Source of the DNA: Bolinopsis microptera | Taxonomy: Eukaryota > Ctenophora > Tentaculata > Lobata > Bolinopsidae | Assembly: GCF_026151205.1 (NCBI RefSeq) | Contig: NC_087078.1 | Coordinates: 14,587,118-14,651,117, forward strand | Direction of reading: 5' to 3' | DNA length: 64,000 nucleotides | Shown: positions 27,779 to 63,262 of the stretch, piece after piece | How the letters are laid out: each line of letters begins with the position of its first letter | Numbering within the stretch: position 1 is the first letter of the stretch | The notes under the pieces: model-generated | Told to the model about the DNA's origin: nothing | Seen by the model: only the letters and a program-made list of their open reading frames with translations | Databases searched by the model: none | Position numbers and translations under genes: made by a program

Positions 27779-29201
27779 CTACTCATTTTCATCTTGTAGT
27801 CCTATAAATTCTAGAGTTTCTCTATCTTTTCTATTGAGATAGGAGTCTCTGATAGGAAACAATCTGTTTGGGCTATTATCATCTAACAGTGCCCTTGCCT
27901 GATCGTCCAGTGTCTCTGTCTTTCTCAGCATTAGAGATAGAAGTCCCGAGATTACAGATGTGAAGACAATAGTCAATACAAGTGGCATCCAGAAGGGAAT
28001 GAAGGAGGTGTACAGGGCAGATATAACAGCACCAACTGCCTGACTGAGGTATAAGATACCGTATTTCACTCCGAAATCTTGCTCGCCAAAGTATCGGATG
28101 GTAGCGGCTGGCATGATGCCATAGTTACCTGTGCAACAGAAGTATGAAGCCCAAACAGCAATGGTGCATAGACTTGCACACGTTGTTTGTCCCGTGAGAA
28201 ACTTGCTAAGATATGACAACAAGATACAAACACCCGTAGCAAGGCAGAGCATGAACAAGGATACCTTGACTCCAAATCTGTCGTGAATGTGTCCCCAGAA
28301 AGGACGTCCCAGTGCATTGAATATTCCTGATAGTGCTATCACTACAGAGAGCAGTATTTTGTCGTCGTGCAGAAAGGTTTTCCCATAATCCCTAGCATAG
28401 GAGTGTATGTACGCTAAAGGCACTTTATTCAGTGCAAAAATCAGAAACAGTAGATAAAATCCAGGCCTGCGGAACATGTCTTTAACAGTTGCTCCGTTTA
28501 TGGAGGCACCATCACTTTTTCCCGTGTCTGGGTTTCTGACAAGGAGAAAGCTTAAAGGAAACTGAAGGAATGTTGACAGTATACCAAACATTAAAAACAT
28601 GTTTGGAACTTTGTTCAGTATGAAAGATTGGTTGAAGATTAACTCGCCATCGATAGGGTTTTTGATGGGGTCCAAATTGTTTGGGTTGGCATAGAGTGAC
28701 TCCAGAGGGCTAATAAAAATGCTAGATAGTCCATAGCCCAAACTAAGAATTCCAGAGAACAGACCGTGATATTGTTTTTCAATCCACGATAAGCCCACAA
28801 CTAAACTCATGACATATATCAGTCCTGAAGTGAACCCTACTATGAAATAGCTGGCCATGAGCGACATTACCGATGTACACGAATAATACATGACAAAGAT
28901 GTTCAAGTTAAACAAAGCAACAGCACAAATTGTAACATTGCTAGTGGAAAACTTCCGCACCATAAGTCCTCCTGTAATCATTGCAATAGCTTGTCCGGTA
29001 ATTTGAGCTGCATACACCCATGACAGGCGTGATTTATCTGTAGAGTGATCCTTATCTATAGACACAATGTAAGAATACAGATAAGGATCGACGAAGTTGA
29101 AACCATAAGTGATCCCTCCAGGAGGAAAGAGGATTACGGAGCAGGATACGATGATGGCCACGAGCAAGGCTTGACTGATGGAGCCTCTTATGACAGTACC
29201 A
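27779..29201 (-). CDS. MFS transporter, OFA/monocarboxylate-like, copy 1
   Basis: One long coding exon of about 470 codons, with twelve hydrophobic segments, an MFS loop motif GRPFWGHIHDRFG between the two halves, and repeated Gly-rich helices (GLIYVMSLVVGLSW, YGLSSIFISPLESLY). It resembles the oxalate/formate or monocarboxylate-type MFS branch in the plasma membrane; the substrate cannot be read from sequence. The exon begins after a good acceptor (ttttcag) at 29201. It has no ATG near that point, because the codon that is ATG in copy 2 is ACT here, so translation must start in an upstream exon or at a non-ATG codon. Closely similar to the gene at 30597-32028. Confidence 0.88.
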
Positions 29202-29454
29202 CTGAAAAGAGTTAGTGGTTAGGGTATTTTAACAGCAAACCATTTAATTGGAATGCATTTTAAAGAGTTTTTTGAGGTTAATTTATGATTTGTCGATACA
29301 AAATGTGTAGCAGTTCTAGATTGAGCATGTGACTAAATAATAAATCTCACATGTTTGCAAAAGGATTACCACAAATGCAGAGACTCGCCATTTTAGTTCC
29401 GAAATAAGCAAGTATTTAAACAGGATTAAAGATAATAGCGTGTTGACTGCTACA

Positions 29455-29660
29455 ATCTACATGGCATACAGCTACACAACGTAATGACAAGTCTATTCCA
29501 GCAAATGGCACCCCATCCATTCCCTCCCATTGTGTAGTTGAGAGGGGTGATGAGGTGCGGGTTTAATCTTGTTGTTTGAGTGCGAACTTTCCCTTGGTTG
29601 AACAGTTCAGCTGACATTTTCTATTATATCTGAGGAATGTTAGAAAGAATGTAATTGTAT
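29455..29660 (-). pseudogene. Duplicated start and promoter of the CARD/TPR gene (remnant)
   Basis: Read on the minus strand from 29530, the sequence aligns to the first ~20 codons of the CARD/TPR gene (shared W-x-A-I-C-x-N-R). It then loses similarity and has no matching downstream exon. The upstream 29531-29660 matches that gene's promoter (agctgacattttctat, gaaagaatg). It is a fragment carried by the duplication that also made the second MFS gene. Confidence 0.8.
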
Positions 29661-30596
29661 GTAAGTGACATTCCAGCTTGATATATTTTTTTGAATTCAG
29701 AAATTTTTCTATAATTGTGTAGGCAGTGTTAGTAGAATAATCCGAATCAAATGGTAAGTAATAAGTTTTCCACATATCTTGAGCTGACAAGATATGTTAA
29801 ATTATTTTTATAAAATTATGACGGTAAAAAGAACAAATGAAGCATCAAGGTTTATTAAAAATTTTTGAATAGCTATAGATCTAACAAAAGTACAAAGATT
29901 CTCGATTAAATCTGATTATACATAACATAATTTATACCCCATTGGTATAACAAATAACATTCAATTATTGTAATTAAAAGATATGATGACGAATTAACAT
30001 TCGAGATCATTCAAATCATCTAGGCTACTCAGATTTGCTTGCATTATCAAGATTTAGGTGCTAATTTACAAACATTGAACTATTGAAACCAAGAAATGCA
30101 GCTGCATTTATTTAGCGGGCGGCCGCTCAATTCCCGATCCATCATATAATTTATTACAGCCCATTTTTTATTATTCAGTTATATGCAAGGCTGTGGTCTG
30201 TTTAGTGAGGCACAGTGCTTGTTAGCGATCTTAAGTTTAGCGCTACGAATTTAAGACAAACTATGAAATCAAAGCCATGGATCGGAAATAAACATTAACA
30301 GGTACACTAACTAGCATACACTAGCATACAATAACTAGCAGGTCCGGCACAGTCTGTAAAAAAATGTATATAATGATTAATATTAGTTGCTAAAAACCAC
30401 AGTTTGATCACCCTGCACTGTGTTAAAACTGCGAAATTTTCAATAAAAATAAATAAATCTTCTAATCACAACATAATTATATTCAATTTTAAAATCGTTT
30501 TTACATAGAAACACAAACCATACTATTAACTATGATCTCTGAAGAATAAATGCAACTTTAATATTTAACGTTTAAATTGTCCTCATTTTTTTCACT

Positions 30597-32028
30597 CTAC
30601 TCATTTTCATCTCTATGTTCCTTAAGTTCTAGAGTGTCTCTGTTTTCTCTATTAAGCTCAAACTCTCTGCTGGGGACCAAACTGTCCGTGCTAGTATCAT
30701 CTAACAGTGCCCTTGCCTGATCGTCCAGTGTCTCTGTCTTTCTCAACATCAGAGAAAGAAGTCCCGAGATTACAGATGTGAAGACAATAGTCAAGACAAG
30801 TGGCATCCAGAAGGGAATGAAGGAGGTGTACAGGGCAGATATAACAGCACCAAGTGCCTGACTGAGGTATAAGATACCGTATTTCACTCCGAAATCTTGC
30901 TCGCCAAAGAATTGGATGGTAGCGGCTGGCATGATGCCATAGTTACCTGTGCAACAGAAGTATGAAGCCCAAATAGCAATGGTGTATAGACTTGCACACG
31001 TTGTTCGTCCCGTCAGAAACTTGCTAAGATATGACAACAAAATACAAACACCCGTAGCAAGGCAGAGCATGAACAAGGATACCTTGACTCCAAATCTGTC
31101 GTGAATGTGTCCCCAGAAAGGACGTCCCAGTGCATTGAATATTCCTGATAGTGCTATCACTACAGAGAGGATCATATCGTCGTGCAGAAAGGTCTGTCCA
31201 TAAAACTTTGAGTAGGAGCCTATGTAAGCTAGAGGCACTTTATTCAGTGCAAAAATTAGAAACAGTAGATAAAATCTAGGTTTACGGAACATGTCTTTAA
31301 CAGATTCGCCGTTTATGGAAGGCATGACATCTTCACCTTTTCTCGTGTCTGGGGTTGGGTTTTTGACAAGGAGAAAGCTTAAAGGAAACTGAAGCAATGT
31401 TGACAGTATACCAAACATTACAAACATCTTTGGAACTTTGTTCAGTATGAAAGATTGGTTGAAGATTAACTCGCCATCGATAGGGTTCTTGATGGGGTCC
31501 AAATTGTTTGGGTTGACATAGAGTGACTCCAGAGGGCTGATAAAAACGCTAGATAGTCCGTAGCCCAGACTAAGAATTCCAGAGACCAGACCATGATATT
31601 GTTTTTCAATCCATGACAAGCCCACAACCAAACTTGTGACATATATCAGTCCTAAAGTGAACCCTGCCAGAAAATAGCTTAACGCCAGTGTCATTACTGA
31701 TCTACAAGAAAAATACATGGCCAAGATATTGATATTAAACATCACAACAGCACAAATTGCAATGTTGCGAGTGGAAAACTTCCTCAACAAGAGCCCTCCT
31801 GTTATCATTGCAATAGCTTGTCCAATCATAAGAGCTGAGTACACCCATGACAGGCGTGATTTATCTGTAGAGTGATCCTTATCTAAAGACACAATGTAAG
31901 AGTACAGATAAGGATCGATGACGTTGAAGCCGTAAGTGATCCCTCCAGGAGGGAAGAGTATGATGGAGCATGATAAGATGGTAACCACAAACCTCGACCT
32001 ACTGATGGAACCTTTTATCATACCATCA
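30597..32028 (-). CDS. MFS transporter, OFA/monocarboxylate-like, copy 2
   Basis: 474 aa from the ATG at 32021, which lies seven bases after a splice acceptor (ttttttcag). Twelve membrane segments and GRPFWGHIHDRFG are present, and it is very similar over the whole length to the gene at 27779-29201. Differences cluster in the central cytoplasmic loop, where this copy has a few extra residues (NPTPDTRKGEDV), and at the C-terminus. An upstream block (32253-32275) resembling the same position of copy 1 (29381-29403) suggests a shared first exon or promoter. Confidence 0.9.
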
Positions 32029-44690: not shown

Positions 44691-47143
44691 TACTTTAAAC
44701 CTCATAATTTCTGATTGAACGTTAATAGAGGAGGTTCTCGAGAAAACTCGAGAACAAGCTCGTAAACATTCTACTTTAAGCGTTCAAACTGTCAGAAAGC
44801 GGAAGGAAGAGCTCGAGAAGAAGATTTTCATTACCTATTCTTCCTCTCCTGAAGCTCAGTCCCAGCCATCTACACCAGTAACTACTGAAGTCGAATCCGC
44901 TCTAGAGATCAACGTTGACAGTTCTGCGAGCCCTGAACCTGTTGCTGACCAGAATGTCTCTCCCGTAACTGCTGTTTCCCCTGTCCTTGAAGTCCTTGCT
45001 GGACCTTCTGCCCAGACTCAGGTAATAACACATACATTTCAGTCACGCAATTTACGAGAGAGAAAAAGACGACGGAGTCTACAACTGGACTCTGACACTG
45101 AGGGATCAGACAGTGATACCAACAGCGACAGCGACTTTGAGCCTGACCCGAGGTAAGAATCTCCTTCTTTATCCGTATCGATGGAAAGTTTCCGGTTTTA
45201 AGTTCAACGTTTGCACAGTGACTTTTGGCCGACCCTGTATTACTAATAATTTTACGTAATGGCATCATAATATAATGATTAGATAAAAAGAGGATTCAAA
45301 TTTCGTCAAAAATTTGCTAAATTCGACGAACAAACTTGTATTCTACAGATTTTTGGATTTTTTAACGGATTCGAATCGAGGCGACACATTCAACAGGAAA
45401 ATCTCACCGGTTCGAACGCTCAAATGTAAGTTTCAACCTTGGCTATTAGCAAACAAGTAATTTGAATATTGATAAGAAACCTCATTCATCAGTGCTATTT
45501 CTGCGATGTTGCTTACATTGGTAAAGTCGTCCTTTTTTGAAAAAGTTCTTGGTTTTGGAAAAATCCGGATGTGGTTTAAATTTTAGCTTTTTAGGTACGT
45601 TCTACTGATGGATGAAATTGGAAATTGGAAGTTCCAGTTTCAATAAAATATTCCATCCCCGTGACATCTCATCAACCGTGTCTAAAATTGTATCAATTTT
45701 GCATCAAATGTTTCCAAAGAGAAAAACGTAAATTTCAAAATTTAATGTTGAACTAATCCTTCAGGACACCACCAGCTAAGAAAGGGAGATACAACTTAAT
45801 GAAACTTGAAAATCTCGCTCCTCGATTAGCCGCAGAACAGTTATCAAACGGGACTGCAGCCCGTTTTCTCAGCAAATACAACGAGGTAGTCGGGATACAG
45901 GAGCAGGTGACAGAAAAGAAGATCCGGAACATACGGGCTAAGTCCAGGGGAGCTTTACTGGATAACCTAAAGGGTACAGCAGTCGAAGCCCTGTATTTCG
46001 ACGGAAGAAAAGATAGAGGAACCCTCCTCAAAGACTCAGACGAAGTTCTCCGGCGCCAAGAAGAAGAACACATTACTTTGGTGGAACAGCCGTCCGGTCG
46101 ATATCTTGGTTTCGCCACTCCTGACAGCGGAAGCGGTTAGTTAGCTAATTCCATTATTTTCATGCTCGCGAGGATTATATTTTGTGACACCAATATTGAT
46201 TGGTAGTATCTAACGTCTCATTGGTCAAACGCTGTCGAATGATACAAAAATTGGTGGCCCTTCCATAGACTCATAGAAATACTGTTCTACTTCTATCTTT
46301 AGATACTGTAATTTCTCATCTTGCTGCACATAAAGCAGCGAGATTTAAAAAAACAGTAGGTTGGTAATACTGTGCTTTAACTCTGTAATATCGGTCCGTC
46401 TACACAATTAACACAATTATCTGATAAATTTGACATTTCAGGAGTCGACACTGTCAGAGCCATCGGAGAACATTGTAAGGAGCTCGGAATTGACATAAGT
46501 GGACTTAAGTGCTGCGGCTGTGACGGGACGAGCACTAACACAGGAAGACATTCGGGAGTTGTCGTCCTCTTGGAAAAGAAGCTGGGGAGGGAACTGCAGA
46601 GAAGTGTTTGCTCATTACACAGGATAGAACTACCCTTCCGGCATTTCTTCACCTCGCTCGATGGAGTCACGACCGGACCTAATTCTTTCTCCGGCCCCAT
46701 CGGGAAGCTTGCTGCTGGACCGGTTCACCAGATGGCGTCGAGGAAGTTTGTCCCACTCAGAGCCCACACCTTCTCCCCTCTTCCTGATGGTGTTGTCAAG
46801 AAACTGAGTTGGGACCAGAAGGTTCTCTACCGCCACGTTTTAGCTGTTCAAACCGGTAAGTGTTTCTAAATTAATTCATTGATACGCTGCTTGTTCAAGC
46901 TCTTCCGAAAACTCTCTCTTGCTAAGCCTGCTCTGGTTCCATTGCTGTTAAATACTGACTCATAGGATTGAAATTTCTAAATTCTTGTTTCCGCAGGGGC
47001 ACTACCACCTAAGCTCGCAGGAACAGAAATTGGCCCCCTCTGCCACGCCAGGTGGATAACATTCCAGAGCAGAATCTTAAGATTATTCATGTCTGGCGGA
47101 GTCCCGGGTAATGTAATGGGTAAATTAAGAAAATTAGCAGAAT

Positions 47144-47858
47144 TTTGGCTACTGCCGTTGTGGTTTATTTATATTTTATATTTTAGATTTTAGAGCTTTT
47201 AATCAGTCTCAATTTATGGTTACTTGAACACAATTGATAGAGTCGTATAATAAGCCTTCAAATATAATAATACTTCCATTAATTCATTAAATAGATACCT
47301 TCGGAGATAAGGTTCATATATTGAGAGTCTTTTTATATTTCCGATTTGAATTGAACTTGTAGCTTATTAGAGAGCTACGTCGAATTGTAACTTGTTGCTA
47401 TCGCAACTAAAATTCAGATATAGTCGGGCAGTGTTGTTACCGTTAGGACGCATCGAAACACGGCTTCTAGATCGCCGATGCGTGGCCTCGTTAATGCTCA
47501 ATTGAAACTAATCAACACGGAACTATGTACCCTATATCATTTGAAGGTCCGTATATTTTGAAAGTTTTTCCGGACTAATGACCAACACCCTGGATCATTT
47601 GAGTAGACCCGTTATCGGTGTTTTATATTTTGAAAGTTTCACTGGACTAATGACCAAAGTCACTGTAGCTGTGCCTTCTAAGAGTTTTACGGGTTAATTC
47701 AATTAACTGTTTCAATCCGTAAAATAAATTTGACTTGGAGGTATACTAAAACTTTGAGTTCTCAAGAGAAATGGATTCGACAAATTCAGCCAAATGAACG
47801 GAACTTTAGCAAAGAACCACCTATAATTAAAGAGTCTTGTTGGTCCGAGAGGCCAACA
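47144..47858 (-). repeat. 3' LTR (minus-strand sense)
   Basis: 715 bp, identical to 55255-55969 except at 47737. Reads TGTTGGCC from 47858 in the element's sense. Confidence 0.95.
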
Positions 47859-47871
47859 CGATCCCCTTTTT
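47859..47871 (-). promoter_or_regulatory. Polypurine tract before 3' LTR
   Basis: Minus strand AAAAAGGGGATCG immediately precedes the LTR's TGTTGG. This is the expected plus-strand primer position. Confidence 0.75.
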
Positions 47872-48207
47872 CATAGAGTTTTTAATTTGATCATTTCACC
47901 GATTAGCCGATTCGCCAACCGAGGGCTTACTCGTACTATTCTAATGAAATATTTCTTTTTCTTTTCGTCTTCTTCTTTTCTTCTATTAAATTTTCCTTGA
48001 CATCCTTAAATTTTAAGACTCTGAATTTTAGAACCTAGGTCTCCTAATTATAATCATCATCTAACACCAAAGTTTTCCTCTCCTTCAAATAGGAGAATAT
48101 TTACTATAATTTAGCCATTAGGGCTGATCAACATTTCTTAAAACTGTTAACATATATTAATACCTAATTCGCCATTAGGGCCGCTCACCACTATTACAAG
48201 TAGTATC

Positions 48208-48448
48208 TTTCTTTTCTTTTCTTTTCTTTTCCTTCCTTTCCTTTCCTTTTCTTTGGTCTTCTTTCTTCGACGACAACGGGGGTCAGGTTACGCCCTGATT
48301 GCGATGCTTTTAAAGTCGGGTTACGTCCCGGTAACGAATTGCTACAATTATAATTCTTTCCATTCCCTCTTCTTTCTTCTTTCTTCTTCTTCTCAACGGG
48401 GGTTACGTCCCGATACGAAACAGATTCGGGTTACGTCCCGATAACGAT
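48208..48448 (-). repeat. Non-coding repeats in the element's 3' region
   Basis: A polypyrimidine run on plus (about 48208-48255, purine-rich in element sense) is followed by four copies of a motif like CGGGTTACGTCCCGATAACG (near 48279, 48316, 48397, 48426). The CGGG/CCCG halves of each can pair. It sits between the last F-box ORF and the polypurine tract. Function is unknown; an RNA-handling signal is possible. Confidence 0.7.
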
Positions 48449-49002
48449 GCGTCTACGGTCTTCGTAGGAAATGTTCCTGTGCAGAGAGGGGATACGGTTG
48501 CGATCCAGAATCTCAATAGACCGGCTAAACGAGAAGATCTACTAGCTTGTAATTTTCTATTCAAGAACTATTTAAGAACCTATGAAATAACTTGATCATA
48601 ACCCCTGGATGGGCCATTTTGGTCAGTAGACTTCAATAAACTTAAAAGGCTCTGAACTGGTACTAAATTAATAGTCTTTTGACAAACTACTTTCAATTTA
48701 TCGGATATTTAACTTATTTGCCTTTTAACTTATTCTTACTTATTTATAATTAATTTCTTACTTAACTTAATAAATGTTTAACTTATTGAAGTCTTATAAT
48801 AACTTTCACAATTTAAACTGTATACATATATTTATTATTTAGGATCTCAGTTGGGCTGAGTTCGATCCTTTACTTATCTAACTTCCTCATCTTTAAACCT
48901 GCCCGTTTTCAGTTTTATATTTTAAGTTTCAAATTTTTCAATATTTACATTTTTCATCATTCTTTATCTAAATGCAGATTCACGCATAGTTATGCGATGA
49001 AC

Positions 49003-49683
49003 TCATTTACCGTATTGCTTATCTTCGTATTTCATCATTTTACTGATTTCTTTTATTTTCTCTTCTGTCATTGTAATAGACAACCAGGTTCCATAAGCTT
49101 TACAGTATTGGTACTTTAAATAATAATCGAATTTGCATTCCATCTTAATAATTGATTTTTCGATTCTTGACAATTTCGTCCATGACTCGTGTTTATACTT
49201 TCCCCAACGTTCTAGGATAACCCAGTCCGATTCATTTGGGAATAATGACTTGTATTTTTCAAATGTTAGACATCTAGTTCTGACAAAACGAGCATAACAT
49301 TTCTTTTGTCCTAATACTGCTGCATTATACGCTCCTCTCATGGTTAGGAGTTTTATCGCGAATTTTCCAATATTCGTTTGTATCCTGGTCCAATACATCT
49401 CGTTCTCCATTAGAATGTCAAAGAGATAATATGTTTCATAATTATAGAAGCTGAAGAGATCTGGATATCCACTTGTTGTGTCTCGCAAATATTGTGAGAC
49501 GATTTTCCCCATCCTTTTGCAAATTAACCTGGCTTTGAGTAAATCACGTAGATTCAGCCTTGTCAAAATAATATGCCATAGTTCAATAGGAAGATTACAG
49601 TTTGAAACTGATTTGACTTCTTTAATGGATAGACTTTGAATTTCTTCTGTTTTTGAAGGTATCTCTTCTGATGTATTTTCCAT
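49003..49683 (-). CDS. F-box-like protein 2 of LTR element
   Basis: 226 aa from ATG. Residues about 31-67 fit an F-box (LPIELWHIILTRLNLRDLL, then ARLICKRM), which would bind Skp1 in an SCF ubiquitin ligase. The remainder has no repeat or known substrate domain. Its whole length aligns with the neighbouring 305-aa ORF (SYET/NYET-Y, IGKFA, TRCL, KMECKF), so the pair arose by duplication. Last ORF of the element. Confidence 0.75.
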   Translation of the reverse strand: MENTSEEIPSKTEEIQSLSIKEVKSVSNCNLPIELWHIILTRLNLRDLLKARLICKRMGKIVSQYLRDTTSGYPDLFSFYNYETYYLFDILMENEMYWTRIQTNIGKFAIKLLTMRGAYNAAVLGQKKCYARFVRTRCLTFEKYKSLFPNESDWVILERWGKYKHESWTKLSRIEKSIIKMECKFDYYLKYQYCKAYGTWLSITMTEEKIKEISKMMKYEDKQYGK

Positions 49684-49853
49684 TTGCTTTGCTGATCAAT
49701 ATGTGGTTAGAAAACTTTAATTAAAGTGATAATGGAAATGACGAAATAGCCTGTTTCTATAATTTTGAACCCGTTGGTGAGTTGTGATATTACGTTTGAC
49801 ATATTACGTTTGATTTACATTTTACATTTTACATTTTCCTTTTTACGGTTTGA

Positions 49854-50771
49854 TTACCCTATTAGAACTTCAATCGGGGGTTTATATTTTATAGCTTGAA
49901 GAAGATTGAAGTTTTTATTCTCTTCGGTTTTCAGCATTTTGCCTATTCTTTGGATCTTTTCCCGATTCGTAGTTATCGGTAGAGACGTACCATATTTATT
50001 CATATATAGTTTCGTTAAGAAAGTTTGGAACTTGCATTCCATTTTAATGCATGATTTTTCCAATGGGGAAATATCCGCCCAAGAATTCTTCTTATATTCC
50101 TTCCATCTTATGATCACTTCGTCGTCAGACGCTTTAGGAGTGAAGCTTCTTAGCCGGTCCTTGAAAGTATACAATGGTAGACACCGTGTTCTTAAAAACC
50201 TCAAGTATGGTTTTTCCACTTTATTGATGGCGCTGCAGTACACCCCTTTCATGATCATGTATTTCATGGCAAACTTTCCAATTTTAGTTTTCATATTCGT
50301 CCAACACATTTGATCTTCTATAAGTAATTCCGTTAAATAGAACGTTTCGTAACTATAAAATTTAAAATTTTCCATTATTACATTGGTAGGGTTCCGCAAG
50401 TAATCCTTCACCAAACTACTGAATCGTTTATTTAATTCTCGTACTTTCAGTAATTGCTTGATGGTGAGGTAATTAAATATCATCACCCATATTTCTATTG
50501 GTATTTCTGTTTCTCGTTTCGTCTCTTCTTTGTGTAGTTGTTCCAAATTATCATCGTTAGAAGCGTCATGCTCGATGTTCAATTCCTCCAGTTCCTCGTG
50601 TATATCCGAAGCACTATTTGAGTCTATTGTATTCTTTGATTCACTTTCCCAGTCGCTGACATCTTGAACACTATCATTTACATTTTCGTAATGTAAATTT
50701 ACAGCTTTCTTTACCTCTTTTTCTGGCACGTTTCCACAATTTATATTTTCGCAATTTAGGTTCCAGTTCAA
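49854..50771 (-). CDS. F-box-like protein 1 of LTR element
   Basis: 305 aa. An acidic, Asn/Glu-rich N-terminal ~90 residues precedes an F-box-like segment (IPIEIWVMIFNYLTIKQLL, VRELNKRF). The C-terminal part is shared with the 226-aa paralogue. It begins 30 bases after the envelope ORF stop, so expression may use splicing or a shared transcript. F-box recruitment of host SCF is the obvious inference, but Skp1 binding is not shown by sequence alone. Confidence 0.75.
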   Translation of the reverse strand: MNWNLNCENINCGNVPEKEVKKAVNLHYENVNDSVQDVSDWESESKNTIDSNSASDIHEELEELNIEHDASNDDNLEQLHKEETKRETEIPIEIWVMIFNYLTIKQLLKVRELNKRFSSLVKDYLRNPTNVIMENFKFYSYETFYLTELLIEDQMCWTNMKTKIGKFAMKYMIMKGVYCSAINKVEKPYLRFLRTRCLPLYTFKDRLRSFTPKASDDEVIIRWKEYKKNSWADISPLEKSCIKMECKFQTFLTKLYMNKYGTSLPITTNREKIQRIGKMLKTEENKNFNLLQAIKYKPPIEVLIG

Positions 50772-50801
50772 GTTTAAATTTGATTCTTCTACTTCGTCTA
50801 G

Positions 50802-52907
50802 TCATAAGACTCTGTTTTTCACATCGTCCACTGAATACACCTTAGTTGTACTAGGCGCTCTTTGTCGCAGTCCTTCGCTATATTCACCACTGAAATTAGT
50901 TTCATCTACTCCAGATTCTTCATCTTTTCCGCTTTCTAAAAGTTCGTCTTTATTTTGTTCTTCTAATTCTATGTCCTTTTCTACTTTCCTTGTCCTGAAC
51001 CGTTTTTTCCAATAGCTGTATAGAAGGAAGATTCCCACTATAATGCTAATCATTACTGTTAAAATTCCTATAAAATTCACAAGAGTTAGATCCTTCGTCA
51101 GATTTAGTCCGATTCTTTCAGATTTGATATGTTTAACAATTTCTTTTTGTTGAACTACATGAGCACTGAGGTGACTTAGATTCGTTCTTTTCAGCAATTC
51201 ATTTTCAGATATCAAATATTCGTCCCATTTTTCGGGGTTCGTCAACTCTAGTTCTTTCGTAAACATTGGCTCTTTAATTGATCTAATGATGTAGTTGTCG
51301 GCAACTATTTGATAATATTTATCGTAGTTGAGAAATTTCACCGTACTTCCATTTGAAATATCCACGTATTCAGTAGGACTTTCTTGCGTCGATGCTTTCA
51401 AATGATGTATTGCTCTGACCATGACACCAGAACTAGTCTGAATATTGCGCATTTGACATTTTTCCATATTCGTTTTACATATTCTTGGGTCGGCGTTTAA
51501 ACACCTTGCTTTCTTTGCAGATTCTTCGTTTTCTTTATTTCCCAGACATAATTTTATCCCACTTCGGACCTCGCAATTATTTTCGTTTTCCAATTCGTAG
51601 AATTCGCCATCTTTTTGATACACGTGATTCGGTATATCCAGACGCATGCACTGAGTACCATTGACCAAACCTACTTGGTTCACTTGATATAGGATGTACA
51701 TTTCATCACTTTTTATTTGAGGTATCGATATAATCACATGAAGATTGAAAAATTTTCCATCTTTCTTTACATCAGCTAGCCACATTCTGCCTAGACGATA
51801 GAATAAAGGGACGTTGTCAACATAAATTGCGTCCTCCATTCTTTTATGTTTCAGCAAATCCAGTATATTCGTTTCATTAAATATTGTGGGACTCACGGGA
51901 CCTTTTAATTGGCCGTCTATCAAATCTTTCGAGAGAGTGTATATATACTCTTTCCAGTCTTGAAGCTGATTTCTTTTCAGGTTATACCGAATTATACTCA
52001 TCATTTCACAGCTTAATTCTTCCAATGACTCCTGGGAATTTAATTCCAAAGTTTTGTACATTTTCAACATACCTTCATGAAATTCCGTTGCTGATTCAAT
52101 ATAGTCCGTCATTTCATTACGGAAATCCTGAAATTGGTCGTAGAACTCGTTAAGTTGAGTTGAAATTTTCGATTGTTCATAGAGACTGAACACTCCAGTA
52201 AGAATAGAACCGGCAAAAAATCCAAGGGCTGCTTGAACAAATCTTTTCTGTTTCCTGTTTTTCGTCAATTCAGTAAGTTTTTCTATTTTTGTCATTGTTT
52301 CATTGACAAAATTTTCATTTGATTTTTCAAACAGAATATTGATTCTGGACTGATATTGTCCACAGAATTTATTCTTATCTTCGACCATGCATCGCATGTC
52401 GAATTCGCTTGAACCTTTAGAATCCTGATGATACGTAGGGATGGTTTCTCTCAGAATGCAGATCACGACGTCAGATCTATATTCCACACCGAAAGCTTTA
52501 CATTTCGGTATTTTGATACATTCTCTGAAACATCGTTCCGCCATTTGTCTAGAATCATTTTCGAGGTCTTTATCCACCGAATTCTCGATTTCCTTTATTA
52601 CATTTTGGCGATCTCCGATTTTGTTGTGCACATGATTACATTTTACGTGGGTTAGCAGTCCCCAAATTACATTTTCGTCAATGTTGCATATGTTTTCGCA
52701 TTCATTTACATTTTTCATTGGATTTCTTATCTTTATAAATGTTGATATCAGCACAGGGGTAATCTCCGGTGCGACGATTCCGATTCCTTGTAAGATGAGA
52801 CCAGTCTTTTCCTGGTGGTAATTGATTTCTTCAATCATTCCTTTTGAAAGTGCTATGCAGCAACTGATAAAGAAGATAACTTGTTGATAATATCCTTTCT
52901 TCCGCAT
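50802..52907 (-). CDS. env: Envelope (class I fusion-like) glycoprotein of LTR element
   Basis: 701 aa, type I membrane protein. It has an N-terminal hydrophobic segment (about 8-20), a Cys-paired region resembling a PAN/apple module (about 126-173), and a dibasic furin-type site RKQKR at 218-222. Directly after this comes a Gly/Ala-rich hydrophobic stretch (223-242) that looks like a fusion peptide, then coiled-coil heptads. Several N-glycosylation sequons, a transmembrane segment at about 609-633 and a 68-residue cytoplasmic tail follow. The architecture resembles baculovirus F and errantivirus Env proteins. The frame is intact, with no stops or frameshifts. Confidence 0.85.
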   Translation of the reverse strand: MRKKGYYQQVIFFISCCIALSKGMIEEINYHQEKTGLILQGIGIVAPEITPVLISTFIKIRNPMKNVNECENICNIDENVIWGLLTHVKCNHVHNKIGDRQNVIKEIENSVDKDLENDSRQMAERCFRECIKIPKCKAFGVEYRSDVVICILRETIPTYHQDSKGSSEFDMRCMVEDKNKFCGQYQSRINILFEKSNENFVNETMTKIEKLTELTKNRKQKRFVQAALGFFAGSILTGVFSLYEQSKISTQLNEFYDQFQDFRNEMTDYIESATEFHEGMLKMYKTLELNSQESLEELSCEMMSIIRYNLKRNQLQDWKEYIYTLSKDLIDGQLKGPVSPTIFNETNILDLLKHKRMEDAIYVDNVPLFYRLGRMWLADVKKDGKFFNLHVIISIPQIKSDEMYILYQVNQVGLVNGTQCMRLDIPNHVYQKDGEFYELENENNCEVRSGIKLCLGNKENEESAKKARCLNADPRICKTNMEKCQMRNIQTSSGVMVRAIHHLKASTQESPTEYVDISNGSTVKFLNYDKYYQIVADNYIIRSIKEPMFTKELELTNPEKWDEYLISENELLKRTNLSHLSAHVVQQKEIVKHIKSERIGLNLTKDLTLVNFIGILTVMISIIVGIFLLYSYWKKRFRTRKVEKDIELEEQNKDELLESGKDEESGVDETNFSGEYSEGLRQRAPSTTKVYSVDDVKNRVL

Positions 52908-53075
52908 CCTTGCTATTTAAGTATTTAGATTAACCACCATTAACCAGTCATATTATAATATATTTTTATAACTGTAACTTTAGTTACAAAGATACAAGAT
53001 TCTAAATTACTACGTGCCTAATTTGGTTTTTGTGTTTTATTAGAAAAGTATACAAAACAGGTCATGCTAAAGTAA

Positions 53076-54458
53076 TTATTTTGGTTCCAGACAACAATCA
53101 CGTTCAATTTGCCTTGGATCTAAAGAGTCTTTTGGCACATTTAAGCTCAGATTTGGCACAAAATCTTGAGACATGGGTATTCCAGTAAGTTTCACTCTGT
53201 CTATACTTTCTACCTTTGAAAGGTTTACCCTCATTTCGTGTAACCCATGAGCACTTTGAGCGAGAATCGTATTATTCACCATCATATATTGGGTCGTAGA
53301 GTTGTGGCAATCTATCTCTATTGCGGTAGGCATTATCATGTTATACTTAGGATCTACATAGCCCTCAATATATTCATCATTTTCCGGCAGATTATATTCT
53401 ATTTTAAACCCGTTATAACACCTGTTGGTGTCGTTTATGAATCGATAATGTTGAATTTGCAGACAAGGATAAATCATTAACAATTTTCCGACCAATTTAG
53501 CCTTTACATCCGTCCTATTTAACTTCCATTGTACGTAATCAGTTGGATCGATTTTCGCTAGGATTCTCTCAGTCCCATATATGTCGTTGTACACGTTACA
53601 CAAATACTCCGTTTGCGCCAACGGACTTTTAATTAATTCCAAAAGATAATTAAATTTATTGACGAGTTCCTCTCTTATTGCTTCGATCGCATTTTCATTA
53701 TTCGAATTTACATTTTCAAGATTAAAATGATACGGGGCTGGGCTTCCCTTTATTTGGAAATCCCTATCGATCCAAGTGTTACCCGGATTTTTCTCCGGCA
53801 GATTAAATGACATGCTCAACTCGGGTACGAGTAGCTTCTTTTCGATTTGTGTTGCATTGAACTGCCCCACAGGCAAATAAGCCCTTTTTACATTTTCAAT
53901 CACGTTCCAAGTGACGTGTTTTCCGTTATGCGTTAGACAGTACCCTGAACTATAGTCGCAACCCTCCATATTTGACAAAGAGGACGTAAATGTATCCTCA
54001 TGATTCGCTATTACTACTCCATCCGAGAAATAACAAGATGTCGTAGTCTTAGATCTGTGTTCCAGCCACTTGAAGTCACATTTAAAATTATTAACCAATT
54101 TCGTCTGATACTCGCCTTTTTCGTTAATACATTTTCGATTTTCAATCAAATATTTAGCCCTTTCTGGGTTTACGGTGATTACTCTTTTACTTTGACCCGT
54201 GATTGTTTCTTCTCCCACAAAATTCATATATGATTCACAGGTTCGAGACATTATTACCAGAGCATTGGCTGATGATTCGTATTCCGCGATGTTACGTTTC
54301 GAGATGGAAATATTCCATTTGACGTAATTTTTATTTTTACATTTTAAATTTTCTGATAGCTTGTATAGCTTTCCCCAATATTCTTCAGAGCAGAGTAGTA
54401 ATGTGGTTTGTGCTATCGATATGGAGACCAGTATTATCACTGTCCTTGCAAACGACAT
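53076..54458 (-). CDS. Secreted Cys-rich glycoprotein of LTR element
   Basis: 460 aa with a clear signal peptide (hydrophobic residues about 6-22), many cysteines and N-glycosylation sequons, and no C-terminal membrane anchor. It lies just upstream of the fusion-type envelope ORF. A separate attachment subunit is one reading; I do not recognise the family. The frame is intact. Confidence 0.75.
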   Translation of the reverse strand: MSFARTVIILVSISIAQTTLLLCSEEYWGKLYKLSENLKCKNKNYVKWNISISKRNIAEYESSANALVIMSRTCESYMNFVGEETITGQSKRVITVNPERAKYLIENRKCINEKGEYQTKLVNNFKCDFKWLEHRSKTTTSCYFSDGVVIANHEDTFTSSLSNMEGCDYSSGYCLTHNGKHVTWNVIENVKRAYLPVGQFNATQIEKKLLVPELSMSFNLPEKNPGNTWIDRDFQIKGSPAPYHFNLENVNSNNENAIEAIREELVNKFNYLLELIKSPLAQTEYLCNVYNDIYGTERILAKIDPTDYVQWKLNRTDVKAKLVGKLLMIYPCLQIQHYRFINDTNRCYNGFKIEYNLPENDEYIEGYVDPKYNMIMPTAIEIDCHNSTTQYMMVNNTILAQSAHGLHEMRVNLSKVESIDRVKLTGIPMSQDFVPNLSLNVPKDSLDPRQIERDCCLEPK

Positions 54459-54553
54459 ATACCTATAGGTATATTTATTTATAACCCCGTTAATTTGGTG
54501 CTGTCCGGTAACACGTTAAATACATGATTTTTTGGATTTTGAGTATTAATAAA

Positions 54554-55228
54554 TTAATTACTAAGTATATCACATTCAAGAAATTCGTCCTCGCTGGACA
54601 GATAAGTCCGGTTGCTAGAGGGGTTTCCCTCTGAAGAGTCTTTCTTTTTCTTCTTTTTGGGCTCTTTCCTTTTTTCATTTTTCCTTCTATGAGCCGTGGT
54701 ACGTACCGGGTCCTCTGACCAGACTTCTGGTTCTGCTTCATTGTCCTCTTCTCTCGATTCTGGCAACTGTGTTTCTTCCATTTCTATGTCGAGATTTTCA
54801 GGGGGCGGGGGAGGAGGTGGTGAACTTGAAGGAGTGCTGACCCGGCTCCAGTCCACATCGCTACCTGTGGGTGTGATGTTTTCATATTCAGGTTCCAGAT
54901 TGGTCCTTTCCTCTTGCCTCTCTGATTTTTTACAAGTTTCTTCATTTTCGCTTCTTGTTTCCTTTTGAGCTCTAGATCTGTCTTCTTCTTGCTTCTCTGA
55001 TTCTTTACAAGTTTCTTCTTTTTCTCTTCTTGTTTCCTTTTGACTTTTAGATCTGTCTTCTTCTTGCTTCTCTGATTCTTTACAAGTTTCTTCTTTTTCT
55101 CTTCTTGTTTCCTTTTGACCTCTAGTAGACGACGAGGGAAATTGATCTTGGGACCATTTTATTGAACTTGATGTTTCAATGATTGAAGTTTGATGTTTCA
55201 GTAATTGAAGCTTGATATGAAGAGATCG
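54554..55228 (-). CDS. Glu/Lys-rich repeat ORF in gag position of LTR element
   Basis: Open for 224 codons from just after an in-frame stop at 55229-55231, but without an ATG; it may be joined to a leader by splicing or start at GTG (54856). It contains about three 25-residue repeats (QKETRREKEETCKESEKQ type), then a Pro run, an acidic segment and a Lys-rich run. It is the first ORF after the primer-binding site, where gag would lie, but no capsid or zinc-knuckle signature is seen. Confidence 0.5.
   Translation of the reverse strand, partial: RSLHIKLQLLKHQTSIIETSSSIKWSQDQFPSSSTRGQKETRREKEETCKESEKQEEDRSKSQKETRREKEETCKESEKQEEDRSRAQKETRSENEETCKKSERQEERTNLEPEYENITPTGSDVDWSRVSTPSSSPPPPPPPENLDIEMEETQLPESREEDNEAEPEVWSEDPVRTTAHRRKNEKRKEPKKKKKKDSSEGNPSSNRTYLSSEDEFLECDILSN
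54898..55122 (-). repeat. 75-bp coding tandem repeat, about three copies
   Basis: Three 75-bp units inside the gag-position ORF; the first two are nearly identical, the third diverged. Unit length keeps frame. Confidence 0.85.
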
Positions 55229-55234
55229 TCAATT

Positions 55235-55252
55235 CGAACCAGGAGGGCACCA
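55235..55252 (-). promoter_or_regulatory. Primer-binding site
   Basis: Directly inside the 5' LTR the minus strand reads TGGTGCCCTCCTGGTTCG. It opens with TGG, the complement of a tRNA CCA end, and contains GGTTCG as in a T arm. The donor tRNA was not identified. Confidence 0.75.
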
Positions 55253-55254
55253 GT

Positions 55255-55969
55255 TTTGGCTACTGCCGTTGTGGTTTATTTATATTTTATATTTTAGATT
55301 TTAGAGCTTTTAATCAGTCTCAATTTATGGTTACTTGAACACAATTGATAGAGTCGTATAATAAGCCTTCAAATATAATAATACTTCCATTAATTCATTA
55401 AATAGATACCTTCGGAGATAAGGTTCATATATTGAGAGTCTTTTTATATTTCCGATTTGAATTGAACTTGTAGCTTATTAGAGAGCTACGTCGAATTGTA
55501 ACTTGTTGCTATCGCAACTAAAATTCAGATATAGTCGGGCAGTGTTGTTACCGTTAGGACGCATCGAAACACGGCTTCTAGATCGCCGATGCGTGGCCTC
55601 GTTAATGCTCAATTGAAACTAATCAACACGGAACTATGTACCCTATATCATTTGAAGGTCCGTATATTTTGAAAGTTTTTCCGGACTAATGACCAACACC
55701 CTGGATCATTTGAGTAGACCCGTTATCGGTGTTTTATATTTTGAAAGTTTCACTGGACTAATGACCAAAGTCACTGTAGCTGTGCCTTCTAAGAGTTTTA
55801 CGGGTTAATTCAATTAACTGTTTCAATCCGTAAAATAAATTTGACTTAGAGGTATACTAAAACTTTGAGTTCTCAAGAGAAATGGATTCGACAAATTCAG
55901 CCAAATGAACGGAACTTTAGCAAAGAACCACCTATAATTAAAGAGTCTTGTTGGTCCGAGAGGCCAACA
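55255..55969 (-). repeat. 5' LTR (minus-strand sense)
   Basis: Promoter-side LTR of the element. The near identity with the other copy means insertion was recent or gene conversion has occurred. Confidence 0.95.
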
Positions 55970-56025
55970 AGAATATGTTGTAAATATATACTTTCCGATG
56001 CATATGTTGGCACTATCCGTCGCGG

Positions 56026-59736: not shown

Positions 59737-62700
59737 ATGCCTAGTTCTTACAGTTACACAGTTTATCTGGGTAAAATACCTTCCGACACTCAAGAGCAAG
59801 ACATAAAGAAGTTTTTCAAAAACTATGGTAAACTGCTGGACATTATAATAATAATAATAATAATAAGTAGGAATTTATACATCGCTTTATAGCCATAAAG
59901 AACTCAAAACCCAAAGATTCAGTTCAAACCATCTAAAGCGACTCATGAGTAACATGTACATAAGAACTTATTTTTATGAAGTATGGATTTTATGAGAAAG
60001 GTAATACATGATACTTATACAAATACGTTTTCAAAGAGATGAGTTTTTAGTTTCTTTTTAAATAAGACGATATCGGTTAGTGTTCTCAATTGATAAGGAA
60101 GCTTATTCCAAACAGAGGGTCCGCAGTAGCTGAAACTTCTCTCGGTTTTACTATAGTTTGAAATAGGAGGAACATTTAGGAGGAAATAGTCTTCTTCAGT
60201 TCTTAGTACATGTACAGGTTGACTTTTGATGTCAATACATTTGATGATATACTCCGGCGCTATGTTGTTAACGCATAAATGAACACGGTTAGAGCAATCT
60301 TATACTCTATTCGTTGTCGTATCGGAAGAAAATGGGCTTTTTTCAGGAATGGAGTGACACTGTCCCATTTTTTGATAGCTTTCCAACCAAACAAGAATCG
60401 AACACAGGAATTTTGTACCTTCTGGAGTTTCTTTATTAGAAGATCAGGTAAACCGTATAAGAGTCCATTGCAGTAGTCTAGTTTTGAAAAGATCAAGCAG
60501 TGAATGAGCTGTCTTTTTAGATCATAGTTAAGCTTTGAGCCTATAACTCGAAGGTTTCTCAGATGGATGTTGCAGCAACTGATAATTGAATTTATTTGGT
60601 CTTCAAATGTTAGGAATTGATCAAATAGGACACCTAAACTTTTCACTGTGCGGGATGCATCCACAGGGTCAGCTGCATTGTCAAGTTGTATTGAATCGAC
60701 TGGACATGAAGAGTAACTGTTCTTGGTCTGTACTACAAGAGCTTCTGTTTTGTTTTGGTTCAGTTTGAGTTTATTTTGGGTCATCCAGGTCTTAATATCT
60801 TCAAAACAATTTGTTATTCTCTCTTCGATTGTTGAGAGATCTCGAAATAGTGGGTTAAACTCAATGTACAGTTGAGTGTCATCTGCGTACATGTGGATGT
60901 TAAATCCATGTCTCTTTGCGATCTGATTGAGCTCCTTTGTGTAAAGTATAAACAGAATTGGACCTAGAATTGAACCTTGCGGGACTCCAATTCTAAGGAA
61001 GCATCTCTTTGATCTTGATTTATCAATAGTTACTGTGAAGGATCTGTTATTAAGGTATGATGTAAACCATTCGAGAACAGTACCTTCAAAACCAAAGTCC
61101 TTTTTTAGTTTTTTTAGGAGCAAGTGATGATTTACAGTATCAAAAGCAGCACTGAGGTCCAAAAGGAGGAGGATAACCTTACTTTTCATGTCACTGATAC
61201 AAAGAAGATCATTGTAGATGGTAAGGGTCGCAGTTTCGCAGCTATGATTTGACCTATAACCACTTTGATGCTCAGCATGAAGATTGTGATAGTCAAGATG
61301 TTTGGTCATCTGTTTCTGGACGCTCTTTTCAATGAGTTTCGAGAGGAAAGGTAAGTTACTAATCGGTCTATAGTTGTTGAAGCTATTGATCATCTTTGAT
61401 GGCTGGTCTGACAAGAGCACTCTTTAGGACTGACGGAAATTTTCCAGTGACAAGTGAGTCATTGATAATAAATGACACAATTGGTTTAACTTCATTAAAA
61501 CACTGCATTAGAAGTTTTAGAGGGATGGGATCCTCTTCACATTCTTTTTTGTTAAGGTCAGAAAGAATCTTTTTGAGATCATTGTCGCTTATGGTTTCAA
61601 ATTGGCTCCAGGCTTCACCTTGAAATGGTTCAGAGTGGTCAAGAAGAATGTCAGCTGCAGTATCATTGTTAATGGCAGAGTAAATCTTTTCCACTTTATC
61701 ATTGAAAAACTCTTTCATCTCCTCACATAGAGTTTCAGCAGGTTTGTTATTAGGCTTCAAGTTTTTAGATATGTCCCGATCCATCAGCTGATTGACTATT
61801 TTGTAGGTATCTTTTTTATTGTCCTCACAGCTTTGCAGACGATTTTCATAGTATAGCTGTCTAGTGGTGTTTATAACTGCCTCGGCATGCTTAACAGCTT
61901 TTTTATAGTCTAATTTTGAATCTGCAGTTTTAAGTCTCCTGTTGTCACGTTCAGCTTTTCTTCGTTTCCTTCTGGCAGTTTGACATTTTGTGTCCACCCA
62001 CTTGCTTTGATCAGGATTAATGCTAAAACAGATAAGGGGAGCATGTTTATCAAGAATTCTGCGAAGTTCTTTGTTATAGAGTTCCGTGGCAGAGTTGCAG
62101 TCAATAAACTTGTTGGGGTCATTTATGTCAGATAGCAACAGATCCTCCTTAAAAAGATTTATGTCTATATCTGATATCTTTCTGCCCACCATATCTTCTT
62201 TGTTGCTTCCTTTGTGGTGAGGAAAGGCAATAGAGAAATTTACGAAGTAGTGATCTGATGTTGTTACTGTTTTAGCTACATCTATATCTTTTATGTTCAA
62301 CATATCACACGCATTGCTTCTAGTAAGAACAAGGTCTAAGATTCCACCCCCAATGTGTGTTGAACTGGAAATATGCTGGATGAGGCCATAGTTTGATATG
62401 AGATGGATAAAATTTATCGTATCAGGATCAGTGAGGTCTTCGACATGGATATTGAAGTCTCCAGCAATGATCAGTCTACCTGGAAGGTGAGTTAGACTGT
62501 CAAGATATTCATCAAATTCCCGTAAAAAGTCTGTCATTTTGGACATTTTAGCCGTACAAGATCGATAGACACAGCAGAAACGAAGAAGGTCATTGGAACT
62601 TGACTTCAGCACACTCTCAACATGTTCAAAGGATTTATGGGTCTTTGTAGGGCGTTTATTGAAGCTAAGATCTTTCTTAAAGGCAATAGCGACACCACCT

Positions 62701-63262
62701 CCTCTACCAGCTCTAGATTGGTGAACAATATTATAGCCTAGGTCTTTAATTTCCGCTATTTTTGACGTTATAATCAAGAAGGGTTATTCTTTTGTCGTGA
62801 GTACTTTAGAATATACTATACTGTTTACAGTCTATTGTAAAAATAATCTCATGTTCATAAGATAATTATAAATTGATTAAATTTGGTGAAATAGCTCTGA
62901 AATTCCGTATGTTGATATACCTGTTATTGTGGCGTTTTTGAATGGCTAACATGAAGAGTGTTGTACTTAATAGTAAAATAAATGTGAACATTTCCTCAGG
63001 AGTTTGAAGACAGGAGAAAAGCAGAAGAGGCTTGTGACGATTTAAATAGCAGGGACTTTTTAGGAAATAGGTAAAAAGATAATTTTAAAATGTTAATATT
63101 ACAGCTGATTTTAAACTTGTTTACTTGACACAACACTTCATGATTTTACTGTGACTTACAAGTCATATTTTCAGATGTGTTGTTCAATTAGCAAAGGGAT
63201 CTAATAGAACTAAAAATAGATCGCCACCCCGTTCAGATTACTTTCCATCTACTGCAAGGTAA
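59737..63262 (+). CDS. SR-type splicing-factor RRM gene, first exon split by LINE
   Basis: The start (59737-59844) encodes VYLGKIP, an RNP2-like motif, and KKFFKNYGKLLDI. After the LINE the frame resumes at 62770 with IIKKGYSFV (RNP1-like) and a GTGAGT donor after 62796. Exons 63000-63070 (EFEDRRKAEEACDDL) and 63175-63262 (VVQLAKG, then NRSPPRS) complete an RRM and the start of an Arg/Ser tail. The order matches SRSF4/5/6-type RRMs. The frame meets TAA at 63260-63262, followed by AATAAA at 63263, so the protein would be unusually short. A donor at 63259 is an alternative. The 2.9-kb LINE in the exon should disrupt this allele unless it is spliced out. Confidence 0.75.
59850..62767 (-). mobile_element. 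CR1/L2-like LINE inserted in SR-gene exon
   Basis: A minus-strand LINE, 5' truncated within the endonuclease domain, ending in a (TTA)n tail (plus 59850-59866). It is flanked by ttataat at 59843-59849 and 62768-62774, extendable to 11 bp with one mismatch. It contains most of ORF2 and about 400 bp of 3' UTR. Confidence 0.9.
60260..62767 (-). pseudogene. LINE ORF2: APE endonuclease and reverse transcriptase
   Basis: Frame 1 (to 61383) carries an APE-type endonuclease: RLIIAGDFNIHV with the catalytic GDFN, and TTSDHYFVNF with the SDH motif. Its N-terminus is missing. Frame 2 (61420-60260) carries the reverse transcriptase: NYRPISNLPFLSKLIEK, LLLLDLSAAFDTVNH, GVPQGSILGPILF and the catalytic YADD. 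The two frames overlap at 61383-61420 and are separated by a frameshift. The RPISNLPFLSK block suits CR1/L2-type LINEs. Not active as it stands. Confidence 0.88.

What the first reader, a model, noticed from the sequence alone, without database searches (positions are those of the whole stretch)
47144..55969. Young LTR element carrying envelope and F-box genes but no gag or pol
Nearly identical LTRs (714 of 715), target duplication, primer site and polypurine tract show recent retroviral-type integration. The whole 7.4-kb interior encodes glycoproteins and F-box-like proteins in intact frames instead of replication enzymes. Intact cargo on a recently mobile, pol-less element suggests a satellite-like element maintained by its accessory genes and mobilised by a helper.
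Basis: partly seen in the sequence, partly recalled or inferred. Interest (0 to 1): 0.88.

Follow-up and report, generated by a model that had tools for sequence, protein, structure and literature searches.

The report
Gutted retrovirus keeping envelope and F-box
This is a recently inserted endogenous retrovirus copy whose replication genes were deleted; the larger point is the parent virus, which carries two different envelope glycoproteins plus two F-box genes, one of which may be made by reading through the envelope gene's stop codon.

Summary
In detail: a young LTR insertion on the minus strand with 716-bp LTRs (1 mismatch), a 4-bp target duplication, a primer site and a polypurine tract, carrying glycoprotein and F-box genes and no gag or pol.

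The satellite reading is only partly supported. Nine other copies keep the same 3' genes, but each of the ten has its own deletion removing RT and integrase; no junction is shared. One copy (C184) with the same LTR and primer site has gag and a pol frame open to the contig end. Three deleted copies still carry gag and the start of pol beside F and the F-box genes. A related element has the whole order gag-pol-GP-F-F-box. So this is a deletion derivative of a Ty3/gypsy endogenous retrovirus, not a satellite lineage.

The parent is the novelty. GP resembles class III fusogens, F paramyxovirus fusion protein; GP precedes F at 14 of 15 further GP loci. F-box genes were found in two related families. 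Here the first F-box frame follows the F stop in frame at UGA-CUA-G, a known readthrough context, in 10 of 10 copies, with no AUG before the F-box: possibly an F-box on the envelope's tail.

The parts
47139..47142 (.). target site duplication, left copy (AGAA)
47143..47858 (-). 3' LTR, 716 bp
47862..47871 (-). polypurine tract just inside the 3' LTR
   Evidence: sequence
47859..49002 (-). 3' untranslated region, matched in all ten copies
49003..49683 (-). F-box gene 2 (226 aa, own ATG); F-box at about 49495-49599
   Evidence: PF00646 2.5e-7; full length in 9 of 10 copies
49854..50801 (-). F-box frame 1 (315 codons, in frame with F, no ATG before the F-box); F-box at about 50403-50507
   Evidence: open in 8 of 10 copies
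50798..50804 (-). F stop codon in context UGA CUA G (proposed readthrough site)
   Evidence: identical in 10 of 10 copies
50802..52907 (-). F, paramyxovirus-fusion-like glycoprotein, 701 aa (by eye: signal peptide, RKQKR before a hydrophobic stretch, TM near residue 620, cytoplasmic tail)
   Evidence: open in 10 of 10 copies
53076..54458 (-). GP, class III (gB/Monjiviricetes-like) glycoprotein; here its C-terminus and TM are lost by a deletion of about 1 kb near 53160 with GATTT at both ends
54554..55153 (-). remnant of the stretch between integrase and GP (pol C-terminus or small ORF), with three 75-bp tandem repeats
   Evidence: assignment inferred
55153..55154 (-). private junction where gag and nearly all of pol (about 5.9 kb on my map) are missing
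55154..55253 (-). leader up to the gag ATG, 100 of 100 nt identical to the pol-bearing copy C184
55233..55253 (-). primer binding site CTGGTGCCCTCCTGGTTCGAA
55254..55969 (-). 5' LTR, 716 bp
55970..55973 (.). target site duplication, right copy (AGAA)

Best explanation
The window holds an internally deleted proviral copy of a Ty3/gypsy endogenous retrovirus whose full form is LTR-PBS-gag-pol-GP-F-(UGA)-FB1-FB2-PPT-LTR. Shown: shared LTR, primer site and leader; ten private deletions; one pol-bearing copy; gag and the start of pol on the same elements as F and the F-box genes in copies D, E and I; a relative with the same gene order. Inferred: each deletion arose at reverse transcription of the roughly 15-kb genome, with Gag, RT and integrase supplied by a full-length copy, so each deleted copy is a dead-end or defective-interfering-like product rather than a maintained satellite. 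Inferred for the parent: GP and F form a two-glycoprotein entry set. F is mostly made as a 701-aa protein; some ribosomes read through UGA-CUA-G and add FB1, putting an F-box (an SCF ubiquitin-ligase adaptor) on the cytoplasmic tail, likely to ubiquitinate nearby membrane or Gag proteins (removal of receptor or restriction factor, or budding). FB2 is a free F-box protein. My odds: deletion derivative as stated (the confidence below); readthrough about 0.55; the use of the F-box about 0.3.
For: Ten copies with F and FB2 at ten loci, nine of them with a GP match; 4-bp target duplications exact in 8 of 10; LTR pairs differ by 0-4 substitutions. Ten different junctions. Integrase of this family at only one place, C184; next best 42%. 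C184 has the same LTR and PBS, a gag frame of 508 codons and a 1399-codon pol frame open to the contig end, with RT, RNase H and integrase domains above cut-off and a protease match just below it. Copies D and E keep the gag frame (2 and 0 residue differences to C184); I matches C184 over 2563 bases (99.7%). Relative at C3:6112056-6127889 with LTRs 99.86% identical: pol 45 and 41%, GP 37%, F 33 and 35%, F-box 27%. Readthrough: in frame, UGACUAG in 10 of 10 copies, first Met at codon 107 of 315; of 4000 dinucleotide shuffles 0 stay open 315 codons and 1 stays open 106; about 0.001 chance of UGA-CUAG at a given stop from base composition; UGA CUA G is the published high-readthrough motif (passages). 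F constrained: 6 nonsynonymous of 14 changes, P 0.002.
Against: C184 ends inside pol, so no full-length copy of this family is in the assembly, and C129's lone 3' LTR does not share its flank. Whether deletions arose before or after integration is not shown; only near-zero LTR divergence argues for before. FB1 could be made by splicing; no RNA was available. The motif alone is weak: of 23 human genes with UGA-CUAG only four showed a conserved extension (passage), the published tests are in mammalian cells, and the window holds TGACTAG three times on both strands. The C3 relative does not use it: its F ends in UAG-UUU and its F-box gene has its own ATG in another frame. FB1 is frameshifted in 2 of 10 copies and FB2 damaged in 1; FB1 and FB2 show no significant constraint (P 0.14, 0.40). 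No function of the F-box was tested. The C3 relative's gag lies in two frames, so it may itself be defective.
Confidence: 0.85

Rival explanations
1. A true satellite: a pol-less LTR lineage carrying envelope and F-box cargo that replicates as such with a helper.
For: Ten pol-less copies against one pol-bearing copy with the same LTR and PBS; F open in 10 of 10 copies.
Against: Ten different junctions in ten copies; copies D, E and I still hold all or much of gag and the start of pol.
Confidence: 0.07
2. Deleted proviruses are kept because F and/or the F-box proteins protect the host against superinfection (domesticated env and F-box cargo).
For: F, FB1 and FB2 mostly intact while GP is complete in only 2 of 10 copies; KoRV-D/E keep env while losing other genes (PMC5696478 passages).
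Against: Copies are so young that intact frames need no selection after integration; sparing of the 3' genes is expected given loss of RT-integrase; GP damage may only reflect its place next to the deletions.
Confidence: 0.15
3. Pol-bearing copies are as common as deleted ones but were lost from the assembly, so the ten-to-one ratio is an assembly artefact.
For: C184 (15.8 kb) breaks off inside pol and C129 (22.4 kb) begins inside a 3' LTR.
Against: No other contig matches this family's integrase, and F of this family is found only in the ten copies; ten deleted copies and a related 15.8-kb element were assembled through.
Confidence: 0.2
4. FB1 is expressed from a spliced RNA rather than by readthrough.
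For: Drosophila errantiviruses make Env from spliced RNA (PMC12992720 passages); the leader keeps the gag AUG; the C3 relative has no readthrough frame.
Against: FB1 is in frame with F at UGA-CUA-G in 10 of 10 copies and needs no new start.
Confidence: 0.3

Closest known systems
Envelope-carrying Ty3/gypsy elements (errantiviruses and their metazoan relatives)
   Same: Ty3/gypsy gag-pol with protease-RT-RNase H-integrase, 4-bp target duplication, fusion glycoprotein genes 3' of pol; type III and F-type envelopes are both reported in such elements (PMC13172572 and PMC12992720 passages)
   Different: GP and F lie in tandem on one element, F-box genes follow, and FB1 appears to be a readthrough extension. 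Chary and Hayashi 2025 is not held, so whether tandem GP-F or F-box genes are already described there could not be checked
KoRV-D/E and recKoRV (defective koala retrovirus forms)
   Same: LTRs and packaging region kept, replication genes lost, helper proposed (PMC5696478 passages)
   Different: recKoRV and KoRV-D/E recur with a common structure at several loci; here each junction is private and env plus F-box are kept
BEL/Pao elements with chuvirus-like glycoproteins in mosquitoes
   Same: a class III viral glycoprotein captured by an LTR element (PMC13172572 passage; PMC7642597 and PMC10084718 seen only in search listings)
   Different: this is Ty3/gypsy, with a second, F-type glycoprotein and F-box genes
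Lentiviral accessory proteins that recruit cullin ligases, such as HIV-1 Vpu (recalled)
   Same: a membrane-anchored viral protein would bring an SCF ligase to a membrane target
   Different: the element encodes the F-box itself; target and activity unknown

Membership tests
Ty3/gypsy endogenous retrovirus (errantivirus-like) | pol order protease-RT-RNase H-integrase | tested here: met
   C184: PF13975 (26.2 bits, cut-off 28.2), then PF00078, PF17919, PF17921, PF00665 above cut-off in this order; absent from the window copy by deletion
Ty3/gypsy endogenous retrovirus (errantivirus-like) | 4-bp target duplication | tested here: met
   8 of 10 copies exact, E and H not
Ty3/gypsy endogenous retrovirus (errantivirus-like) | env gene 3' of pol | tested here: met
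   IN-GP-F order at C3:6.11-6.13 Mb and at six other loci of 15
Ty3/gypsy endogenous retrovirus (errantivirus-like) | placement of RT inside the errantivirus clade | not tested
   no RT tree was built; the RT query did not complete
Satellite LTR element (autonomously amplified pol-less lineage) | several integrations sharing one deleted structure | tested here: not met
   ten junctions in ten copies
Satellite LTR element (autonomously amplified pol-less lineage) | helper with same LTR and PBS | tested here: met
   C184
Internal deletion derivative of a retrovirus | both ends kept, junction joins parental sequence | tested here: met
   leader 100 of 100 identical to C184; microhomology 0-5 nt in the six copies where measured the deletion junction
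Paramyxovirus-F-like class I fusion protein | Pfam PF00523 above cut-off | tested here: inconclusive
   window F itself has no match; its relative P0005 reaches 25.2 (cut-off 29.8); the F relative at C12:5489030 reaches 40.6, and window F matches that locus at E 7.6e-23
Paramyxovirus-F-like class I fusion protein | trimeric class I fold | tested here: inconclusive
   model mean pLDDT 38, not usable
Class III fusogen (gB/Monjiviricetes) | profile match | tested here: inconclusive
   gB 22.1 bits, cut-off 43; a profile of four relatives matches nine PDB sequences at E up to 10, best E 3.3e-6, a gB; relative at C3: PF24664 26.5, cut-off 27
F-box protein | PF00646 above cut-off | tested here: met
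   FB2 30.8 and FB1 25.1 against 20.5; the C3 relative's F-box protein has no Pfam match
F-box protein | binds Skp1 | not testable with these tools
   needs an experiment
Stop-codon readthrough gene | UGA CUA G context with an open in-frame extension | tested here: met
   10 of 10 copies keep the context; extension fully open in 8 of 10
Stop-codon readthrough gene | extended protein detected | not testable with these tools
   no RNA or protein data

The most novel reading that the evidence does not exclude
A retroviral fusion glycoprotein is made in two forms by programmed stop-codon readthrough, the long form carrying an F-box on its cytoplasmic tail, so that the envelope itself recruits a host SCF ubiquitin ligase at the membrane; a second F-box gene supplies a soluble version, and pol-deleted proviruses keep expressing this set.
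Probability: 0.5. Interest if true: 0.82.

Novelty: new variant of a known kind. Interest (0 to 1): 0.62.

Why it matters
Retroviruses of vertebrates hijack cullin ligases through accessory adaptors (recalled). A retroelement that encodes F-box proteins, and may fuse one to its envelope by readthrough, would be a direct and testable route to the same end. The tandem GP-F pair, seen at 14 of 15 further GP loci in this genome, suggests a two-glycoprotein entry system in Ty3/gypsy elements. Ten young copies with ten private pol deletions give a clean natural record of how invading retroviruses decay into defective forms.

Tried and rejected
Splicing as the cause of the deletions: junctions differ between copies, and the GP junction in the window has GATTT at both ends rather than splice signals. 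BEL/Pao membership, first suspected from a 5-bp duplication: the duplication is 4 bp and pol is Ty3/gypsy. A deletion shared by copies A and G, suggested by blastn, was withdrawn after exact walking. C184 and C129 as two sides of one insertion: 4-nt flanks differ. F-box fused in other F families with 856-905-codon frames: no Pfam match (one of those three frames was scanned). Viral contigs with F relatives: none confirmed, 13 pattern matches. F-box relatives in the protein database: none of 601 candidates. Structure model of F too poor to use. Host identity not settled; the insect guess was dropped.

Papers seen: passages of PMC13172572, PMC12992720, PMC12859917, PMC4132726, PMC12233894 and PMC5696478; search listings only for PMC7642597 and PMC10084718; Chary and Hayashi 2025 only as a reference and as summarised in PMC12859917. 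I saw no paper on an F-box gene in an LTR retroelement, but these listings were capped (20 of 22, 12 of 20 and 10 of 385 shown), so this is weak.
Full report
Observation. The window carries one LTR insertion on the minus strand. LTRs are 716 bp (47143-47858, 55254-55969) with one mismatch, a 4-bp target duplication, a primer site and a polypurine tract. Inside are GP (460 aa), F (701 aa), an F-box frame in line with F, and a second F-box gene. RT and integrase are absent, and of gag only the start codon is left.

Copies. The LTR finds 30 places in the 264.65-Mb genome, fragments included (a lower bound). The primer site finds 13, all beside family LTRs: ten in copies with the F-box genes and three elsewhere (C184, C7:6143669, C11:2581046). 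The ten copies (A window; B, D, G and H on C12; C on C6; E on C11; F on C7; I on C2; J on C3) lie at ten loci. Target duplications are exact in 8 of 10 (not in E and H). LTR substitutions within copies are A1 B0 C1 D0 E3 F1 G1 H0 I4 J1 (in B, E and J one LTR is interrupted and was compared in two parts). One further LTR, on C8, is a solo LTR flanked by TAAT on both sides.

Pol partner. C184 has an LTR 99% identical, the same primer site and 100 of 100 leader bases, then a gag frame of 508 codons (502 from its ATG) with zinc knuckles (by eye) and a 1399-codon pol frame open to the contig end, with RT, RNase H and integrase domains and a protease match just below cut-off. The integrase of this family occurs once in the genome; the next match is 42%. 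C184 breaks off inside pol, so no complete copy of this family is assembled.

Deletions. Each copy departs from C184 at a different place and re-enters at a different place: A K855, B K857, C K872, D K2902, E K3380, F K822, G K870, H K1130 (with about 22 nt of filler), I about K3418, J about K1920, where K is the position in locus L021. On my map the missing stretches are 3.6-6.9 kb and all ten cover RT to the integrase core (the map assumes no bases between the end of C184 and the first right-hand base seen in copy F; adding 500 or 1500 gave the same probabilities). Several copies have further deletions or insertions, among them the GP deletion of the window copy. Microhomology is 0-5 nt at the six deletion junctions that could measure (A 5, B 1, C 0, D 1-3, E 0, G 1); F, H, I and J were not measured there. 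Since no junction is shared, nothing shows that a deleted form moved again. Since the copies are so young, the deletions most likely happened at reverse transcription; that step is inferred. That the ancestor was one long element is shown by D, E and I, which hold gag and the start of pol, nearly identical to C184, on the same element as F and the F-box genes (gag of I has a one-base insertion).

Is the cargo selected? If deletions of these lengths fell anywhere, the chance that all ten spare F to FB2 is about 1e-4; given that RT-integrase is overlapped, about 0.04; given that RT-integrase is wholly removed, about 0.8. So loss of pol, not keeping of cargo, is the regularity to explain. F is open in 10 of 10 copies (J lacks 24 nt in frame), FB1 in 8, FB2 is full length in 9; GP is complete in 2 (E, F). 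Nonsynonymous shares are 6 of 14 in F (P 0.002), 7 of 11 in FB1 (P 0.14) and 5 of 7 in FB2 (P 0.40) (copies of unequal length were left out: J for F, D and I for FB1, G for FB2). Constraint on F fits selection during replication of the parent.

The parent. A related element at C3:6112056-6127889 has LTRs 99.86% identical, gag (in two frames, so perhaps frameshifted), one 1472-codon pol frame, a small ORF, GP (552 codons), F (714) and one F-box gene. Its proteins match ours at 45 and 41% (pol), 37% (GP), 33 and 35% (F) and 27% (F-box, E 5e-12 in a small comparison). This confirms the gene order. The stretch before GP in our family (54554-55153 in the window) may be the pol C-terminus or the counterpart of that small ORF; I could not decide. 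In the whole genome, 14 of the 15 GP loci that I paired outside the ten copies have F downstream on the same strand within 4 kb, and 7 of 15 have an integrase match upstream within 5 kb. Of 28 F loci outside the ten copies, 14 have no GP match upstream. Relatives of FB1 were found only in the window family and at C3, with a truncated F-box-gene relative in the C5:19.2-Mb copy of the C3 family, by eye.

What GP and F are. GP: Pfam gB below cut-off in the window copy; a four-sequence profile finds nine PDB sequences, top hits named glycoprotein B; the C3 relative nearly reaches Monjiviricetes fusion. F: the window sequence has no significant Pfam family, but its relative at C12 reaches paramyxovirus F0 above cut-off, and PAN domains above cut-off are seen in the N-terminal part of two other F relatives (L059, L064). 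The structure model was too poor to use.

Readthrough. The F stop is UGA followed by CUAG; the next 315 codons are open in frame and hold the F-box; the first Met is codon 107, inside the F-box. The context is identical in 10 of 10 copies, the extension fully open in 8. Of 4000 dinucleotide shuffles none stays open for 315 codons and one for 106. UGA CUA G is the published high-readthrough motif: about 31% in OPRL1 and 3.5% in MDH1 (PMC4132726), with LDHB more than 15-fold below MDH1 (PMC12233894); all in mammalian cells (passages). P0004, an F relative from the protein database, ends in a stretch 41% identical over 32 residues to the FB1 C-terminus (E 9e-7 in a three-sequence comparison), so an F-box relative seems to follow F in another source too. 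Against: the C3 relative has UAG-UUU and a separate F-box ORF with its own ATG, and only four of 23 human genes with UGA-CUAG showed a conserved extension. The host is not identified.

Verdict. An ordinary deletion derivative of an unusual retrovirus. The satellite reading is weak; the tandem glycoproteins with F-box genes, and above all the F-FB1 readthrough frame, are the part worth following.

Noticed in passing
G000 C11:8035456-8039075, C5:10100372-10103997, C6:20637320-20640945 (L055-L057): A further GP-F family whose F frame runs 856-905 codons with a long charged tail and no Pfam match (only L055 was scanned); no integrase row lies nearby, so perhaps also pol-less.
   Followed up: partly
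L065 and L066 (C11:19.895 Mb, C4:7.735 Mb): F relatives followed by an ORF of 425-457 codons with repeated KIKLGRGRGRTSEKVNED units, a possible other accessory gene.
   Followed up: no
C11:2581046-2581776 (L019) and C7:6142951 (L017): LTRs 91% identical overall; in the C11 copy the LTR end, leader and gag part are about 99% identical to this family, so it looks like a mosaic.
   Followed up: partly
copies C (L026) and J (L036): A 98% identical insertion of about 0.84 kb sits in GP of copy C and in gag of copy J: probably an independent young mobile element.
   Followed up: no
window 54908-55132: Three 75-bp tandem repeats in the stretch between the deletion junction and GP.
   Followed up: no
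L021:2314-2356: The gag and pol frames of C184 overlap by 43 nt with pol in the -1 frame, suggesting -1 frameshifting.
   Followed up: no
window 27779-32021 and 60260-62777: Tandem major-facilitator transporters and a LINE-type endonuclease/RT pair on the minus strand.
   Followed up: no
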